A stretch of DNA of 64,000 bases. It comes from Actinomadura sp. NAK00032 (GTDB taxonomy: Bacteria > Actinomycetota > Actinomycetes > Streptosporangiales > Streptosporangiaceae). Both the position numbers and the translations under genes were made by a program. Of this stretch, positions 2,554-9,002 are shown piece after piece (within the stretch, counting starts at the first letter, position 1; every line of letters starts with the position of its first letter). The notes beneath the pieces are model-generated. The model was not told where the DNA came from and made no database searches. It saw only the letters and a program-made list of their open reading frames with translations. The stretch is taken from the NCBI RefSeq assembly GCF_013364275.1, contig NZ_CP054932.1:4712001-4776000 (forward strand). The letters are read 5' to 3'.

Positions 2554-3231
2554 GTGACGGTTACGGACGAAGCGCTCCCCCGCCCTCCGGGCGGCGCCCG
2601 CGATCGCGGCGGGCCCGGGGCCGGTGCCGGGTCCGGTGATGACGCGGGCGCGGCGGTCGCGGCGGAGCTGGCGCGGGACCTGGACGCCGGGTTCGCGGCG
2701 CTGTACGAGGCGTACCGGGGTGCGGTGTTCTCGACGGCGCTGCGGCTGTGCGGGCGGTGGGCCGAGGCCGAGGACCTGTCGGCGGAGGCGTTCCTGCGGG
2801 CCTACCGGGCGCTGGCGGGGTACGAGGCGGACCGGATCGAGGGGCTGCGGCCGCGGGCGTGGCTGCTGGCGATCCTGACGAACGTGTGGCGCAACAGCCT
2901 GCGGTCGGCGGCGCGGCGTCCGGTGGCGGCGCCGATGGAGGACGCGCCGGACCCGCCCGATCCGGGTGAGGGGGTGGAGGACGCCGCGGCGCGCCGGGAG
3001 ACGGGCCGGGAGCTGGCGGCGCTGCTGGCCGAGCTGCCGGAGGCGCAGCGGGCGGCGGTGGTGCTGCGGCATGTGACGGGTCTTCCCGTCGCCGAGGTGG
3101 CGGCGGTGCTGGAGTTGCCGGAGGGCACCGTGAAGTCGCATGTGTCGCGGGGGCTGGCGCGGCTGCGGAGGCTGCGCGGCGTCCCGGACGGGCGTGAGGG
3201 GCCGCGTGAGCGGCGGGAAGGAGGCCGGTGA
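2554..3231 (+). CDS. ECF sigma-70 family RNA polymerase sigma factor
   Basis: A 225-residue two-domain sigma factor. After a Pro/Gly-rich leader, region 2 spans about residues 45-115 (FAALYEAYRGAVF and a DLSAEAFLRAYRAL segment) and region 4 spans about 150-210 (LPEAQRAAVVLRHVTG, then LPEGTVKSHVSRGLARLRRL). No SnoaL or TPR C-terminal extension is present. Its stop codon overlaps the next gene's ATG by 1 nt (TGATG), implying coupled translation with an alkyltransferase/Ada-like protein where an anti-sigma factor would often sit. A role in an alkylation response is an inference from this coupling. The start is GTG; the ATG two bases upstream is followed at once by a stop. Confidence 0.9.
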   Translation: MTVTDEALPRPPGGARDRGGPGAGAGSGDDAGAAVAAELARDLDAGFAALYEAYRGAVFSTALRLCGRWAEAEDLSAEAFLRAYRALAGYEADRIEGLRPRAWLLAILTNVWRNSLRSAARRPVAAPMEDAPDPPDPGEGVEDAAARRETGRELAALLAELPEAQRAAVVLRHVTGLPVAEVAAVLELPEGTVKSHVSRGLARLRRLRGVPDGREGPRERREGGR

Positions 3232-4040
3232 TGACCGGTGCCGATGCCTTCGGCGGGGCGGATCCGGTGGATCCGGCGGTGGATCCGATGGTGGACGCGG
3301 TGGTCGGTGAGCTGGCGGGGCTGGCCGCGGACGCGCCGGCGGGGCTGCTGGAGCGGATCGCGGCGCGGCGGGTGCGGGTTCCCGGGCCGGTGCAGGACGG
3401 GCCGCTGGCGGGGCTGCAGGTGGCCTTCACCGACCGGGGCGTCGCCTACGTGCGGGCGGGGATGGGCGAGCGGGAGTTCGCCGAGGCGTTCCGGGACCGG
3501 TTCGCGCGGCCGCTGCTGCCGGCGGAGCGTCCTCCGGCGGGGCTGGTGCCGGCGCTGCGGTCGGGGCGGCTGGGCGGGCTGCGGCTGGACCTGCGGGGGC
3601 TGAGCGAGTTCGAGGCGGCGGTGCTCGAGGCGGCGGCGGCGATCCCGCGCGGGCAGACGCGCCCGTACGCGTGGGTGGCGCGGCGGGCGGGGCGGCCGCG
3701 GGCGGTGCGGGCGGTGGGTTCGGCGCTGGGCCGCAATCCGGTGCCGCTGCTGATCCCGTGCCATCGGGTGACGCGGTCGGACGGGTCGCTGGGCGAGTAC
3801 GTGTTCGGTGCGGGGGCCAAGGAGCGGCTGCTGCGGGCCGAGGACGTGGACGTCGAGGAGGCGGCGGAGCTGGCGCGGCGGGGGGTGCGGCTGGTGGGGT
3901 CGGACACGACGGGGATCGTGTGCTATCCGACGTGCGCGGACGCGCGGCGGATCGCGCCGGGGCACCGGCGCGGGTTCGCGGGCCTGGCGGCGGCGGAGGC
4001 GGCCGGGTACCGGCCGTGCCTGCACTGCCGCCCCGCCTGA
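3231..4040 (+). CDS. Methylated-DNA-protein cysteine methyltransferase fused to Ada zinc domain
   Basis: A 269-residue protein with inverted domain order compared with classical Ada. The O6-alkylguanine transferase domain comes first, with acceptor C177 in the IPCHRV motif and the preceding IPRGQTRPYAWVA helix. An Ada-type zinc/phosphotriester domain follows, with ligands C231, C235, C263 and C266 (VCYPTCADARR, RPCLHC). There is no AraC-type helix-turn-helix. The first 50 residues are acidic and helical with no clear family. ATG 3231 is preceded by GGAGG at the proper distance; GTG 3228 is an alternative. The gene overlaps the upstream sigma factor by 1 nt. It could both repair alkylated DNA and signal alkylation to the sigma factor (inference). 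Confidence 0.88.
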   Translation: MTGADAFGGADPVDPAVDPMVDAVVGELAGLAADAPAGLLERIAARRVRVPGPVQDGPLAGLQVAFTDRGVAYVRAGMGEREFAEAFRDRFARPLLPAERPPAGLVPALRSGRLGGLRLDLRGLSEFEAAVLEAAAAIPRGQTRPYAWVARRAGRPRAVRAVGSALGRNPVPLLIPCHRVTRSDGSLGEYVFGAGAKERLLRAEDVDVEEAAELARRGVRLVGSDTTGIVCYPTCADARRIAPGHRRGFAGLAAAEAAGYRPCLHCRPA

Positions 4041-5359: not shown

Positions 5360-5611
5360 ATGCCGACGATCACTTCCGACCACCTGCACACCCTGCTGGC
5401 CTCCGCCGACCGCGACGCGGCGCTCGTCGTGGTCGGGGGCCGCGCGGCGGTCGTGCCGGCCGATCCGAGCCGCGGCGGCGGCCCCGAGGACGCGCTGGTG
5501 ATCACCACGCGGGACGCGGTGATCGCCGAGCTGGACACCGGCGCCAACGAGGAGCAGATCGAGGCGCTGGCCCAGCGGCTGGACGTCGCCCTGGAGAGCC
5601 TCGGCGGCTGA
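5360..5611 (+). CDS. Small hypothetical protein (83 aa)
   Basis: An 83-residue protein from ATG 5360 with a strong GGAGGT ribosome-binding site 6-8 nt upstream. It is mildly acidic and has no signal peptide or membrane segment. The central part alternates beta-like stretches (AALVVVGGRAAVVPAD, DALVITTRDAVIAEL) and ends in an amphipathic helix (EEQIEALAQRLDVALESL). I do not recognise the family. It stands alone between the epimerase and the convergent CDGSH gene, behind a 17-bp tandem repeat that may control it. G/C at third positions supports coding. Confidence 0.75.
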   Translation: MPTITSDHLHTLLASADRDAALVVVGGRAAVVPADPSRGGGPEDALVITTRDAVIAELDTGANEEQIEALAQRLDVALESLGG

Positions 5612-5635: not shown

Positions 5636-5911
5636 TCAGCCGCGGGCGCGGCGGCGGTGGCTGGTGTCGCAGAACGGGTAGGAGCGGCTGCGGCGGCACG
5701 CGCACAGCGCGACCAGCCACCGGTCCGACACGACCGTGGAGCCGTCCTCCAGGACGACCTCGACGGGGCCCTCCACCAGGACCGGGCCGCCCGGCACCAT
5801 CCGCACCCGCCGCCGCTCCCCCGGCGCGGACGCATGCCCTCCCCCGTGCCTTTCCCCCTCCCTTTCCTCGGGGCCGGGGGCGGGGTCAGGCGGCCTGGTG
5901 CCGGTGCTCAT
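5636..5911 (-). CDS. CDGSH-type iron-sulfur protein
   Basis: A 91-residue protein whose C-terminus carries one CDGSH-type [2Fe-2S] motif: C70, C72, C81 and H85 in LCACRRSRSYPFCDTSH, the 3-Cys/1-His pattern of the mitoNEET family. The first 35 residues are Pro/Glu-rich and probably disordered. A bacterial single-motif protein of this kind is expected to be a soluble electron-transfer or cluster-transfer protein. ATG 5911 has GAGGAGG upstream; GTG 5932 is possible. It overlaps the end of the methyltransferase gene by 26 nt and is the last gene of a four-gene operon. Delivering electrons to the metal oxidase two genes upstream is a plausible inference. Confidence 0.88.
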   Translation of the reverse strand: MSTGTRPPDPAPGPEEREGERHGGGHASAPGERRRVRMVPGGPVLVEGPVEVVLEDGSTVVSDRWLVALCACRRSRSYPFCDTSHRRRARG

Positions 5912-6614
5912 GGCCCTCCTCACCGTCCTCACCGCAGGCGGTCATCCCGGCCGCGGCGACCTCGCCGCGGACCACGACGAGGTCCTCGTGCAGCTGCCCG
6001 GGCCCCAGCAGGCCCCGCGCGGCCAGCAGCGCCGCGCGGCGCCGCATGACCGGCCCGAACGGCTCGCGGCGCCGGGCGACCACCGACGCGCGCAGCCCGG
6101 CGGCGCGCAGCGCCACCAGCGTCGCCGCGACGCCGTTCAGCGCCGAATGCACCACCAGCAGCGTCCCGCCGGGCGCCAGGTGCCGCGGGGCGAGCGCGCA
6201 GATCCGGTCCAGCAGGGCGCGGCCGTCGTGGCCGGCCTCCCAGGCGCGGGCCCTGCCCCGCACCGCCGCCGGGTCGGCGTCCCCGGCCACGTACGGGGGG
6301 TTGGCGACGATCACGTCGAAGACCTCGCCGGCGACCGGGGCGAACAGGTCGCCGCGCAGCACCCGGACGGGCAGGCCCCGCAGCCGGGCGTTCATCCGCG
6401 CGGTGAGGACCGCGGGCGCCGAGACGTCCACGGCGACGACGTCGCAGCCGGCGCGGGCGGCGGCCAGCGCGACCGCGCCGGTGCCGGTGCCGAGTTCCAG
6501 GACGCGGGCGCCCGGCGGTGCGCCGGCGCGGGCCAGTGTCCGGGCGAGCGCGCCGGTCAGCAGCGAGGTGTCGGTCTGCGGCCGGTACACCCCGGGCGGG
6601 CGCAGCAGCATCAT
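5886..6614 (-). CDS. HemK/PrmC-like class I SAM-dependent methyltransferase
   Basis: A 242-residue methyltransferase. Motif I LELGTGTGAVAL (residues 39-50) binds S-adenosylmethionine, D63 closes strand 2, and NPPY (105-108) is the signature of N5-glutamine or N6-adenine methyltransferases. The N-terminal PPGVYRPQTDTSLL resembles the release-factor methyltransferase (HemK2/Mtq2) group. ATG 6614 overlaps the stop of the oxidase gene by 4 nt, with GAGGAGGA upstream. It does not look like the housekeeping PrmC: it is short and lacks the long N-terminal helical domain. A dedicated substrate within this operon is likely (inference). Confidence 0.88.
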   Translation of the reverse strand: MMLLRPPGVYRPQTDTSLLTGALARTLARAGAPPGARVLELGTGTGAVALAAARAGCDVVAVDVSAPAVLTARMNARLRGLPVRVLRGDLFAPVAGEVFDVIVANPPYVAGDADPAAVRGRARAWEAGHDGRALLDRICALAPRHLAPGGTLLVVHSALNGVAATLVALRAAGLRASVVARRREPFGPVMRRRAALLAARGLLGPGQLHEDLVVVRGEVAAAGMTACGEDGEEGHEHRHQAA

Positions 6615-7741
6615 CGCCGGTCCTCCTCTCCCCCACCGGCCGACGGCGAGCCGGGCGGGGCGTCGGGCAGGGGGCGGCGCAGCGCGGGGCGGCCGGCGCG
6701 CCAGCGCGCCATCAGATGGCCGGCCAGGCGGTCCTCCAGCAGCCCGGTCGCCCGCACGCCGAGCACCACGTCGGCGGCCAGGCCGGGCTCGGCGGCCAGC
6801 AGCGCGCCGATCACGTCGTGGCGCAGGACCTGCTCGTGGACGGCGTCGGCCTCGATGTGCTCGGTGTAGAACAGGACGGCGCGGGGGCCGGCGCCCAGTC
6901 GGCGCAGGGCCGCGGCCATCCGCCGCGCGGACGGCGCGGTGGTGATCTCGGCGGCGGCGAAGTGCCCGACCAGCGCGCCGCGCAGCGACCGGTGCAGCCC
7001 GAACAGCGACATCATGGTGACGGTGGCGAGCATCTGCGGCGGGGCGGCGTCGACGTAGGCGCCGTAGGAGGGGTCCAGGCCGAGGTCGTCCAGGAGGGCG
7101 GCGTACAGGCCCTGGTGGGTCATCTCGGGGCGGCCGCCGCCGAACTCGTCGTTCTCGACGGCGACCAGCGCGGTCTTGGCGCGGCCCCGCAGCCGCGGGA
7201 TGACCCAGGCGTGCGGGTCGGCCTCCTTCAGGTGGTACACCGACCGCAGTGCCGCGTGCTCGCGCAGCTGCCAGGCGGGGGCGTCGTCGCGCAGGTGGTG
7301 GGTGACGCCGCCGGCGCCTACGGGTTCGACCAGCAGTTCGTCCAGGGCGGCGTCCACGTCGGAGTCCGGGCCCGTGTCCGGGCCTGTGCCGGTGGCGGTG
7401 GCGGTGGCGGTGTCGCGGCGGAGCGCGGTGAGGAACGCGTTCTCCAGGGCGGCGCGGGTCCGCAGCAGCGCCGGGTCCCACTCCCAGTCGGGGTGGACGC
7501 CGGCGAAGCCCTGGTAGTGCAGTTCGTAGCAGGTGTGCAGGGCGAGCTGGAGGTCGTCCCCGTAAGGGTCGGCGGCCGCGGCGGCGGCGGGGCCGGGCAG
7601 GCGGCCGGCGTCGCCGGGCGGCGGGCCGGCGCGCAGGGCCTGGGTCACGGCGCGCGACAGCGGGCCGCGCGGTGGCGGCGGCGCCGGCGGTGCGTCCGTG
7701 GCGGCCGTGGTTCGCGCGGCCGTGGCCTGCGGAGCGGTCAT
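6611..7741 (-). CDS. Haem-oxygenase-like iron-containing redox enzyme
   Basis: A 376-residue protein of the haem-oxygenase-like fold (iron-containing redox enzyme/Haem_oxygenas_2 type). Candidate metal ligands lie on helices at E73/H75 (YELHYQG), E196 (AVENDEFGGG), H260/E265 and E294/H295/E297/H302 (YTEHIEADAVHE). This is the Glu/His set expected for a non-haem di-iron oxidase; characterised members of the superfamily include UndA, BesC and SznF. The N-terminal 60 residues are Ala/Pro-rich, and a Thr/Asp-rich insertion sits near 111-130. ATG 7741 has GGAGG at good spacing. It lies 13 bp behind the ligase gene and overlaps the methyltransferase by 4 nt. The substrate is unknown. Confidence 0.85.
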   Translation of the reverse strand: MTAPQATAARTTAATDAPPAPPPPRGPLSRAVTQALRAGPPPGDAGRLPGPAAAAAADPYGDDLQLALHTCYELHYQGFAGVHPDWEWDPALLRTRAALENAFLTALRRDTATATATGTGPDTGPDSDVDAALDELLVEPVGAGGVTHHLRDDAPAWQLREHAALRSVYHLKEADPHAWVIPRLRGRAKTALVAVENDEFGGGRPEMTHQGLYAALLDDLGLDPSYGAYVDAAPPQMLATVTMMSLFGLHRSLRGALVGHFAAAEITTAPSARRMAAALRRLGAGPRAVLFYTEHIEADAVHEQVLRHDVIGALLAAEPGLAADVVLGVRATGLLEDRLAGHLMARWRAGRPALRRPLPDAPPGSPSAGGGEEDRR

Positions 7742-7754
7742 CGGTCCTCCGTTG

Positions 7755-9002
7755 TCAGGGGGCGTCCGGCTCCGGTACCCGCTCACACGCGTCCCATACG
7801 CCCGGTTCCTCCCCAGGTGGTGCGGGGGGCGCCTCCGCTGCGCCGGGCGGCCGGCCCGACTCGGTCTGCCGCGCCAGCATCTCCACCACCGCGCGCGGGC
7901 CGCCGTCCGCGGCGGCGCGGCGCTGCCGGTCGGCGCCCGTCCCCGCCCGGCGGACCGCGGCCAGCAGCGCGCGGACGGTGTCCAGGTCCCCGGCGGCGGC
8001 CAGCGCGGGCGCCGCGCGGGCGACCATCGCCTCCACCCGCCGCCACGCCGGGACCGGCCGCCCGGTGGCGGGGTCGGCCAGCGCCGCGGACATGCCGTCG
8101 CGGGCGGCGTTCCACAGCGCCGCCGCGCACAGCTGCGCGTCCGCGCGGGGCGCCTCCCGGCCCGCCGCCAGGTCGGCCAGCGCCGCCCCGACCAGGCCCC
8201 GCACGAGCCCGGCCTGCAGCGCCGCCTCCGCCGCGGTCCCGGCCGCGTCGGCGGCGCGGACCTCGACCGTCGGCCACCGGGTCGATGGCCGCGCCAGCCA
8301 GAACGTCATCGCCTCGTCGACCAGCACGCCCGCCTCCACCAGCGCCGCGACCCGCGCGTCCCACGCGGCGGCCGACGCGGTCCACGGCGGGACGCCGGCG
8401 CCGGGGAACCGCGCCATCGCCACGGCCCGGCGGGAGGCGTGGGCGGTGAGGCGGCCGCGGTCGAACGGGGAGTTGGCCGACAGCGCCAGCAGCACCGGCA
8501 GCCACGGCCGCAGGTGGTTGACCACCGCCACCGCGGTGTCGCGGTCGGGGACGCCGACGTGGACGTGGCAGCCGCACGCCTGGTAGTCCTCGACCACGTC
8601 CCCGTAGGCGGCCATGACCGCGGCGAACCGGGCACCGGGCGCGGGCGGCGGCGGGGGCCCCTCCAGCACCGGGGCGCCCGAGGCGACCAGCAGGGCGCCG
8701 CGCGCCCGTGCCGCCGCCGCCAGCCGCTCGCGCCCGAACCGCAGCTGCGCGCCGAGCCCGGCCAGGTCGTGGCACACGCCCGTGGCCGCCTCCACCTGCG
8801 TGGACAGCAGTTCGGGCTGGAAGGAGCCGCCCGCGCGCGCCCACCGGTGCGGGCCGGCCGCGGCCAGCACGGGGCCGGCGTCCGGGACGCACCGCCCGGT
8901 CGCCGCGTCCGCCAGCACGAACTCCTCCTCCACCCCGATCGTGCCGGGCACGGCCGCGCGGTCCCGGTCCATGCGGTCCCGGTCCATGCGGTCATGGTCC
9001 AT
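7755..9002 (-). CDS. YbdK/GCS2-type glutamate-cysteine ligase-like carboxylate-amine ligase
   Basis: A 415-residue ATP-dependent ligase of the GCS2 (plant/EgtA/YbdK) class. Seen are GTIGVEEEFVL (ATP/metal site, residues 20-30), GGSFQPELLSTQVE, and GCHVHVGVPD, all characteristic of the family. It would join a carboxylate such as glutamate to an amine such as cysteine. The N-terminus consists of a threefold MDRDR-type repeat, each unit starting with Met; the first ATG (9002) has a GAGGGGG stretch upstream. It is the first gene of the ligase-oxidase-methyltransferase-CDGSH operon, 95 bp behind a TauE/SafE exporter. Whether it makes gamma-glutamylcysteine or another amide cannot be told from sequence. 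Confidence 0.87.
   Translation of the reverse strand: MDHDRMDRDRMDRDRAAVPGTIGVEEEFVLADAATGRCVPDAGPVLAAAGPHRWARAGGSFQPELLSTQVEAATGVCHDLAGLGAQLRFGRERLAAAARARGALLVASGAPVLEGPPPPPAPGARFAAVMAAYGDVVEDYQACGCHVHVGVPDRDTAVAVVNHLRPWLPVLLALSANSPFDRGRLTAHASRRAVAMARFPGAGVPPWTASAAAWDARVAALVEAGVLVDEAMTFWLARPSTRWPTVEVRAADAAGTAAEAALQAGLVRGLVGAALADLAAGREAPRADAQLCAAALWNAARDGMSAALADPATGRPVPAWRRVEAMVARAAPALAAAGDLDTVRALLAAVRRAGTGADRQRRAAADGGPRAVVEMLARQTESGRPPGAAEAPPAPPGEEPGVWDACERVPEPDAP
8958..9002 (-). repeat. 15-bp triplicated start region (Met-Asp-Arg-Asp-Arg units)
   Basis: Three consecutive 15-nt units fill the first 15 codons of the ligase gene. Two are identical (gcggtcccggtccat on the plus strand at 8958 and 8973) and the outermost (8988-9002) differs at two bases. 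Each unit begins with an in-frame ATG, so the start codon itself is triplicated. The unit length keeps the frame whatever the copy number. Confidence 0.85.

What the first reader, a model, noticed from the sequence alone, without database searches (positions are those of the whole stretch)
5636..9002. Four-gene operon: GCS2 ligase, haem-oxygenase-like oxidase, HemK-like methyltransferase, CDGSH protein
Four genes are packed with a 13-bp gap, a 4-nt overlap and a 26-nt overlap, so they are co-expressed. The chemistry is suggestive: a carboxylate-amine ligase makes an amide, a non-haem metal oxidase could oxidise it, a CDGSH [2Fe-2S] protein could feed electrons, and an NPPY methyltransferase could finish or modify a protein partner. 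Haem-oxygenase-like di-iron oxidases (UndA, BesC, SznF) make unusual small molecules. I know of no described pathway with this set.
Basis: partly seen in the sequence, partly recalled or inferred. Interest (0 to 1): 0.75.

Follow-up and report, generated by a model that had tools for sequence, protein, structure and literature searches.

The report
Stress-linked oxidase with iron-sulphur partner
Four packed bacterial genes turn out to belong to a widespread actinobacterial set built around an oxygen-using iron enzyme and a small iron-sulphur protein that usually sit side by side, often with a methyltransferase and a stress-type promoter, so they may make or modify a protective small molecule that has not been identified.

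Summary
Four minus-strand genes lie at 9002-5636: YbdK-type GCS2 ligase, PF14518 haem-oxygenase-like oxidase (HDO), HemK2/MTQ2-type methyltransferase and CDGSH protein, with a 13-nt gap and 4- and 26-nt overlaps.

The set is not confined to one lineage. In 118 genomes of the class, 45 of 54 HDO loci have a CDGSH gene within 3 kb; of 50 CDGSH genes in HDO-bearing genomes, 45 lie there (about 0.08 expected). Methyltransferase and CDGSH both accompany 73 of the 80 best named relatives, collinear or convergent. GCS2 is an optional addition (31 of 80), nearly all in one HDO clade.

The HDO keeps a complete SznF-like candidate metal site, invariant in 81 sequences.

New here: a SigB/SigF-type promoter pattern (GNNT-N14-16-GGGTAY) lies upstream of the HDO in 45 of 80 named loci (0.7 in shuffles; 4.4% of neighbouring genes). 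In the window it sits inside the 3' end of GCS2 (7775-7799), so the trio may be expressed without GCS2.

Best reading: a general-stress oxidase with the CDGSH protein as dedicated [2Fe-2S] partner and interchangeable tailoring enzymes. Substrate, product and electron transfer are inferred.

The parts
6611..7741 (-). Haem-oxygenase-like (PF14518) oxidase, 376 aa; candidate metal ligands E173, E199, H209, E265, H295, D299, H302
   Evidence: Pfam 6.4e-55; the seven residues conserved at 1.0 in 81 rows and invariant in the 20-row alignment A1; aligned to SznF; AlphaFold model pLDDT 85.7 matching HrmI, SznF, RohS
5636..5911 (-). CDGSH [2Fe-2S] protein, 91 aa; ligand motif CACRRSRSYPFCDTSH at 5657-5704
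   Evidence: Pfam 7.7e-17; motif; 45 of 54 HDO loci in the class sample have such a gene within 3 kb
5886..6614 (-). HemK2/MTQ2-type class I SAM methyltransferase with NPPY, 242 aa
   Evidence: TIGR00537 114.7 bits over cut-off 87; NPPY invariant in 17 rows; model closest to N6AMT1/HEMK2 and PrmC
7755..9002 (-). YbdK-type GCS2 carboxylate-amine ligase, 415 aa; optional, clade-limited member
   Evidence: Pfam 2.4e-38; NF010041 342.8 bits over cut-off 332; PDB relative YbdK 1r8g; present in 31 of 80 named loci
7775..7799 (-). SigB/SigF-type promoter-like site GTAT-N15-GGGTAC, before the HDO start at 7741 and inside the 3' end of GCS2
   Evidence: Position; this kind of site is enriched upstream of the HDO in 45 of 80 named loci, 7 of 21 and 10 of 33 sampled loci; kept in several Actinomadura without GCS2

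Best explanation
The core is a two-protein redox unit: an HDO non-haem (probably di-iron) oxidase and a small CDGSH [2Fe-2S] protein that serves as its dedicated partner, most likely giving single electrons for O2 activation or re-reduction of the metal centre. A SAM methyltransferase, and in some lineages a GCS2 amide ligase or a family-2 glycosyltransferase, tailors the substrate or product, probably an amino-acid-derived small molecule. The unit is switched on by SigB/SigF-type general-stress sigma factors, so the product or activity is protective under osmotic, oxidative or drying stress. Shown here: the gene set, its co-occurrence across the class and in part beyond it, complete candidate metal and [2Fe-2S] ligand sets, and promoter-pattern enrichment. 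Inferred: electron transfer, the kind of substrate, actual sigma dependence and the protective role.
For: CDGSH within 3 kb of 45 of 54 HDO loci, and 45 of 50 CDGSH genes in HDO genomes lie there. Layout varies: methyltransferase and CDGSH on the HDO strand in 53, convergent in 20 of 80 named loci, so the link is not only inherited synteny. Candidate ligands invariant and aligned with SznF; fold match to HrmI, SznF, RohS. Stress-type promoter pattern: 45 of 80, 7 of 21, 10 of 33 against shuffle means 0.68, 0.20, 0.30, and 44 of 997 other neighbouring genes; the own genome has two SigBFG sigma genes over the cut-off. Tailoring partners vary: three other methyltransferase groups, a glycosyltransferase and an HDO-glycosyltransferase fusion. 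Precedents: MboA needs the flavin/Fe2S2 reductase MboB for its second oxidation (PMC13185094, passages); DtpC, an HDO, protects dried Acinetobacter (PMC13232832, abstract, passages and section 6).
Against: No experiment touches these proteins. Nine of 54 HDO loci lack a CDGSH gene within 3 kb, five of them with an NPPY methyltransferase instead, and the seven weaker HDO relatives have no CDGSH motif in the DNA read, so CDGSH is not always needed. Outside the class only 4 of 12 loci read have it. Most loci of the class sample have no match to the strict promoter pattern (37 of 54), and in the window alone one such site is expected by chance. Other HDOs can be supported by chemical reductants or mediators, so a protein partner is not a general need. 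CDGSH could deliver iron or clusters rather than electrons.
Confidence: 0.5

Rival explanations
1. A four-gene biosynthetic operon as first read: GCS2 makes an amide, the HDO oxidises it, the methyltransferase finishes it, CDGSH supplies electrons, all on one transcript.
For: The four genes are packed; GCS2 is upstream of the HDO on the same strand in 30 of the 31 named loci that have it, in Thermomonosporaceae, Streptosporangiaceae, Pseudonocardiaceae and some Streptomyces; 6 of 30 GCS2 genes carry their own stress-type site.
Against: No GCS2 was found near the HDO in 49 of 80 named loci (in two of these, L017 and L024, the contig begins at the HDO); it is nearly confined to one clade; the HDO keeps its own promoter-like site with or without GCS2.
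Confidence: 0.2
2. A direct protection device, not biosynthesis: the HDO scavenges oxygen species or binds iron in stressed cells, as discussed for DtpC; CDGSH shuttles electrons or iron, and the HemK-like enzyme methylates a protein glutamine.
For: DtpC protects dried Acinetobacter and needs its predicted metal-binding residues (PMC13232832); stress-type promoter pattern here; methyltransferase nearest to HEMK2/N6AMT1 and PrmC; one HDO follows an RsbU/SpoIIE-type stress regulator.
Against: The methyltransferase type changes between lineages, and glycosyltransferase or GCS2 come and go, which fits small-molecule tailoring better; the nearest solved HDOs are biosynthetic N-oxygenases. DtpC itself was not compared here by sequence.
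Confidence: 0.25
3. CDGSH matures the oxidase by handing over iron or a cluster, or senses redox state, and gives no catalytic electrons.
For: CDGSH proteins elsewhere are linked to cluster and iron transfer (recalled); the co-occurrence fits a maturation factor equally well.
Against: Nothing here separates the two roles; HDOs commonly load Fe(II) unaided in vitro (recalled).
Confidence: 0.2
4. Chance or passive synteny.
For: The 80 named loci are close relatives, mostly of two genera.
Against: About 0.08 CDGSH neighbours expected against 45 seen in a class-wide draw; orientation changes; CDGSH also near 4 of 12 loci outside the class.
Confidence: 0.02

Closest known systems
SznF, HrmI and RohS (HDO N-oxygenases)
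   Same: Fold; the only PDB relatives found by sequence; candidate metal ligands align
   Different: About 16-22% identity in the structure matches; they belong to natural-product pathways (recalled); no CDGSH partner was mentioned in what I read
MboA-MboB (mangotoxin HDO with a dedicated reductase)
   Same: An HDO with an Fe2S2-bearing redox partner and amino-acid ligases encoded beside it (PMC13185094, passages)
   Different: MboB uses NAD(P)H, a flavin and Fe2S2, and the ligases are ATP-grasp; here the candidate partner is a 91-aa CDGSH protein and the ligase is of the GCS2 family
DtpC of Acinetobacter baumannii
   Same: HDO with a stress-protective role, co-transcribed with another stress gene (PMC13232832)
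   Different: Beside katE; the word CDGSH has 0 occurrences in the main text; not compared by sequence
Mycobacterium smegmatis SigF-regulon genes MSMEG_1771-1773
   Same: A putative methylase followed by two conserved hypotheticals, strongly SigF-dependent; a 667-nt step between the first two starts resembles the methyltransferase-CDGSH layout of L094/L148
   Different: Identity with the trio is not verified: the published promoter strings were not found in 297 and 387 genomes of the presumed genus
HEMK2/MTQ2 and PrmC methyltransferases
   Same: Fold, NPPY, TIGR00537 cut-off met
   Different: PrmC equivalog cut-off not met, no PrmC N-terminal part; substrate unknown

Membership tests
HDO (haem-oxygenase-like oxidase) | Haem-oxygenase-like helical fold | tested here: met
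   Model pLDDT 85.7, pTM 0.86; Foldseek HrmI 1.7e-07, SznF 2.9e-07, RohS 4.9e-06
HDO (haem-oxygenase-like oxidase) | 3-His/3-carboxylate metal site | tested here: met
   E199, H209, E265, H295, D299, H302 (and E173) conserved at 1.0 in 81 rows, aligned to SznF; residues only, geometry not measured
HDO (haem-oxygenase-like oxidase) | Bound Fe and O2-dependent oxidation | not testable with these tools
   Needs protein
HDO N-oxygenases (SznF, HrmI, RohS) | N-oxygenation of the substrate | not testable with these tools
   Nearest solved relatives only
CDGSH/NEET | Three Cys and one His in C-x-C-x2-S/T-x3-P-x-C-D-G-S/A/T-H (motif recalled) | tested here: met
   CACRRSRSYPFCDTSH: all four ligands, Gly replaced by Thr; Pfam over cut-off
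HemK2/MTQ2 methyltransferase | TIGR00537 cut-off and NPPY | tested here: met
   114.7 against 87 bits; NPPY invariant in 17 rows
HemK2/MTQ2 methyltransferase | Protein glutamine (or lysine) methylation | not testable with these tools
   Needs protein
PrmC | Equivalog model cut-off and N-terminal part of the model | tested here: not met
   99.1 against 199.1 bits; match starts at model position 64
YbdK/GCS2 ligase | Full-length GCS2 domain | tested here: met
   Pfam 2.4e-38, residues 23-303; TIGR02050 232.5 over 176.4 bits; equivalog models of the family are not reached
SigB/SigF-type stress regulon | GNNT-N14-16-GGGTAY upstream | tested here: met
   Window site 7775-7799; enrichment; alone it is no more than chance in 64 kb
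SigB/SigF-type stress regulon | Sigma-dependent transcription | tested here: inconclusive
   MSMEG_1771-1773 are SigF-dependent but their identity with the trio is inferred from layout only

The most novel reading that the evidence does not exclude
CDGSH proteins of Actinomycetota are the dedicated one-electron donors of a whole class of haem-oxygenase-like oxidases, forming a widespread, SigB/SigF-controlled pathway with interchangeable methyl, glycosyl and glutamyl tailoring enzymes that makes an undiscovered stress-protective metabolite.
Probability: 0.3. Interest if true: 0.8.

Novelty: new variant of a known kind. Interest (0 to 1): 0.62.

Why it matters
[quoted passage not shown] Here is a candidate second kind of pair, found in many families of the class, with a partner from a family (CDGSH) whose bacterial role is largely unknown (recalled). 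The promoter pattern ties it to survival rather than to one natural product, and suggests a role for hypothetical genes of actinobacterial stress regulons. Each step can be tested with small soluble proteins and deletion strains.

Tried and rejected
Looked for other constant neighbours: among gene families around the 80 rows (named loci and window), those beyond HDO and methyltransferase (CDGSH was too short for that gene caller) occurred in 39 rows or fewer. Looked for second HDO copies between HDO and CDGSH in part of clade B: the gene there is a family-2 glycosyltransferase, not an HDO; my note that called them tandem HDOs was wrong. Tried to tie the trio to M. smegmatis by promoter strings printed in PMC5445863: no match in 297 and 387 genomes, so that link stays an inference. 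The MSMEG_1773 passages in PMC7390352 and PMC5656591 gave no useful annotation. A plasmid search gave 13 records, all named for actinobacterial genera, none pursued. Two papers on RohS and SznF were not held, so SznF residue roles beyond the alignment and the two papers read in part are recalled.
Full report
WHAT IS THERE. The window lies in a 9.43-Mb chromosome whose best named relative for this HDO is Actinomadura meyerae (91% identity over the best segment). The four genes are as reported: GCS2 9002..7755, HDO 7741..6611, methyltransferase 6614..5886, CDGSH 5911..5636, with Pfam matches well above cut-offs. The genome holds one match to this HDO, five GCS2 matches and three CDGSH matches that make two genes, the other a two-domain gene 463 kb away.

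THE OXIDASE. Solved relatives found by sequence are SznF, HrmI and RohS. In 81 aligned sequences E173, E199, H209, E265, H295, D299 and H302 are conserved at 1.0, and all are invariant in the 20-row alignment A1. They align with SznF: LKEADP with LSEASP, DEFGGG...H with DEYGYG...H, the E of AAEIT with that of YTESS, and H-x3-D-x2-H with H-x3-D-x2-H. The spacing of E199 and H209 is that of E143 and H153 of DtpC, where changing E143, H153 or H232 to alanine abolished protection (PMC13232832, section 6). The model (mean pLDDT 85.7) matches HrmI, SznF and RohS best, then FlcD and CADD. The same seven residues occur in nine of nine more distant HDOs checked. Metal geometry was not measured.

THE NEIGHBOURHOOD. 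Of the 80 best named relatives (of 553 found), 73 have methyltransferase and CDGSH with midpoints within 3 kb, 31 have GCS2, 29 have all four, and 7 lack one or more of the trio, several of them on short contigs. In the 73, methyltransferase and CDGSH are on the HDO strand in 53 and convergent in 20. In a draw of 118 genomes of the class, 59 had an HDO match. I read 61 loci; seven weak matches, none with a CDGSH motif in the DNA read, were set aside, leaving 54. Two groups appear by profile score. In clade A (21 loci, one being the window) 17 have methyltransferase and CDGSH and 20 have CDGSH; the exception, L102, runs into a contig end. In clade B (33 loci) that methyltransferase is replaced: 25 have CDGSH within 3 kb, 10 have a distantly related DPPW/DPPY methyltransferase, 5 an NPPY methyltransferase of another group and no CDGSH, and 3 a third kind; some of these lie more than 3 kb away. 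A glycosyltransferase follows the HDO in nine places of clade B. Flanks were only 1.5 kb for L086-L115 when first read.

HOW TIGHT IS THE HDO-CDGSH LINK. PF09360 was searched in the same 118 genomes. With domains of one gene merged there are 70 CDGSH genes; 50 lie in genomes with an HDO and 45 of those are within 3 kb of it, 30 at a gap of 1-188 nt and 15 at 734-1693 nt between profile matches, against about 0.08 expected for random placement in a 5-Mb genome. Of the five others, three are two-domain genes, one lies 7.7 kb away and one is on another contig. Twenty more genomes have CDGSH without this HDO, so CDGSH has other roles. In a phylum-wide draw of 100 genomes 23 had an HDO match. I read 12 of the 17 places outside the class: 4 have a CDGSH motif, 5 the glycosyltransferase, 6 neither; the places left out were one split over two contigs (two rows) and three weak matches.

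GCS2. On a tree of 80 HDOs, 31 of 40 rows in one well-supported half carry GCS2 and 1 of 40 in the other; the tree needs 7 changes (the window is one row and L064 was not included because no gene was called). This reads as one gain with several losses, but in L017 and L024 the contig begins at the HDO, so absence there cannot be judged. The half spans Thermomonosporaceae, Streptosporangiaceae, Pseudonocardiaceae and a few Streptomyces. GCS2 is a real, long-kept partner in that clade but not part of the core.

A STRESS PROMOTER. S. coelicolor SigB-type promoters have a GNNT or GTTT -35 region and a GGGTA-like -10 region (PMC8346170, passages). Within 350 nt upstream of the HDO profile start the pattern GNNT-N14-16-GGGTAY occurs in 45 of 80 named loci (shuffle mean 0.68, maximum 3), 7 of 21 clade A and 10 of 33 clade B loci of the class sample (means 0.20 and 0.30; maxima 2 and 4). 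In a 300-nt version it occurs in 44 of 997 other neighbouring genes. Methyltransferase genes in convergent layouts have it in 5 of 27 (mean 0.38), in collinear layouts in 3 of 66 (mean 0.68). Sequences are related, so these are not independent trials; the 17 hits of the class sample, the window among them, fall in six of its numbered families. In the window the site is at 7775-7799, before the HDO start at 7741 and inside the GCS2 reading frame. It is the only match to the 15-spacer form in 64 kb, though one is expected by chance, so comparison, not the single site, carries the argument. Of nine Actinomadura loci in which saw no GCS2, L016, L018, L019 and L021 keep the site and L022 has it; L014 and L023 show none; L017 and L024 have too little DNA. 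The own genome has two SigBFG-type sigma genes over the cut-off. In L149 the HDO follows an RsbU/SpoIIE-type gene by about 67 nt in my gene calls.

PUBLISHED EXPRESSION. In M. smegmatis MSMEG_1771 (putative methylase), 1772 and 1773 fall strongly in a sigF mutant (PMC4694148, one table passage), and the cluster that holds them is up-regulated in bacteria cycled through spray drying (PMC5445863, passages). The listed promoter distances of 29 and 696 nt fit a 667-nt step between the first two starts; in L094/L148 the methyltransferase profile starts about 650 nt before the called CDGSH start.

MECHANISM. The most economical reading is an oxidase with its own small iron-sulphur donor. MboA shows that an HDO can need a specific Fe2S2-bearing partner for full conversion (PMC13185094, passages). 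Partners beyond the pair change with lineage: four kinds of methyltransferase, GCS2, or a glycosyltransferase that is once fused to the HDO (L166). Interchangeable decorating enzymes point to a small molecule. The rival, direct protection as discussed for DtpC, is open.

STATUS. Of nine full-text searches, the two that asked for CDGSH with such an oxidase returned 0 papers. One search listed 12 of 23 papers and none of the listed ones held the word CDGSH; one search listed 15 of 287; some searches asked about regulons and genes. The library covers open-licence papers only, so a description elsewhere is possible. I rate the module as a new variant of a known kind: known protein families in a widespread, stress-linked combination that I did not find described.

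Noticed in passing
window 5360-5611 (+) and L165:8287-8520: An 83-aa protein without a Pfam match, convergent with the CDGSH gene and in a 10-member cluster, resembles a 78-aa protein near a distant HDO (36% over 83 aa, E 1e-09): a possible small extra member of the module.
   Followed up: partly
L166:9565-11919: HDO fused to a family-2/21 glycosyltransferase in one reading frame; separate genes in related loci.
   Followed up: partly
L165:7854-8213: A GvpK gas-vesicle gene lies just upstream of methyltransferase, HDO and glycosyltransferase.
   Followed up: no
L179, L183, L184: HDO genes outside the class sit beside genes that look like Ku and LigD of DNA end joining (by eye).
   Followed up: no
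L090 and L146 (one genome): Two HDO copies on one contig, one with methyltransferase and CDGSH, one with CDGSH only.
   Followed up: no
window 3228-4040 (+): Ada-type protein with an O6-methylguanine methyltransferase domain followed by an Ada metal-binding domain; the order seems unusual (recalled).
   Followed up: no
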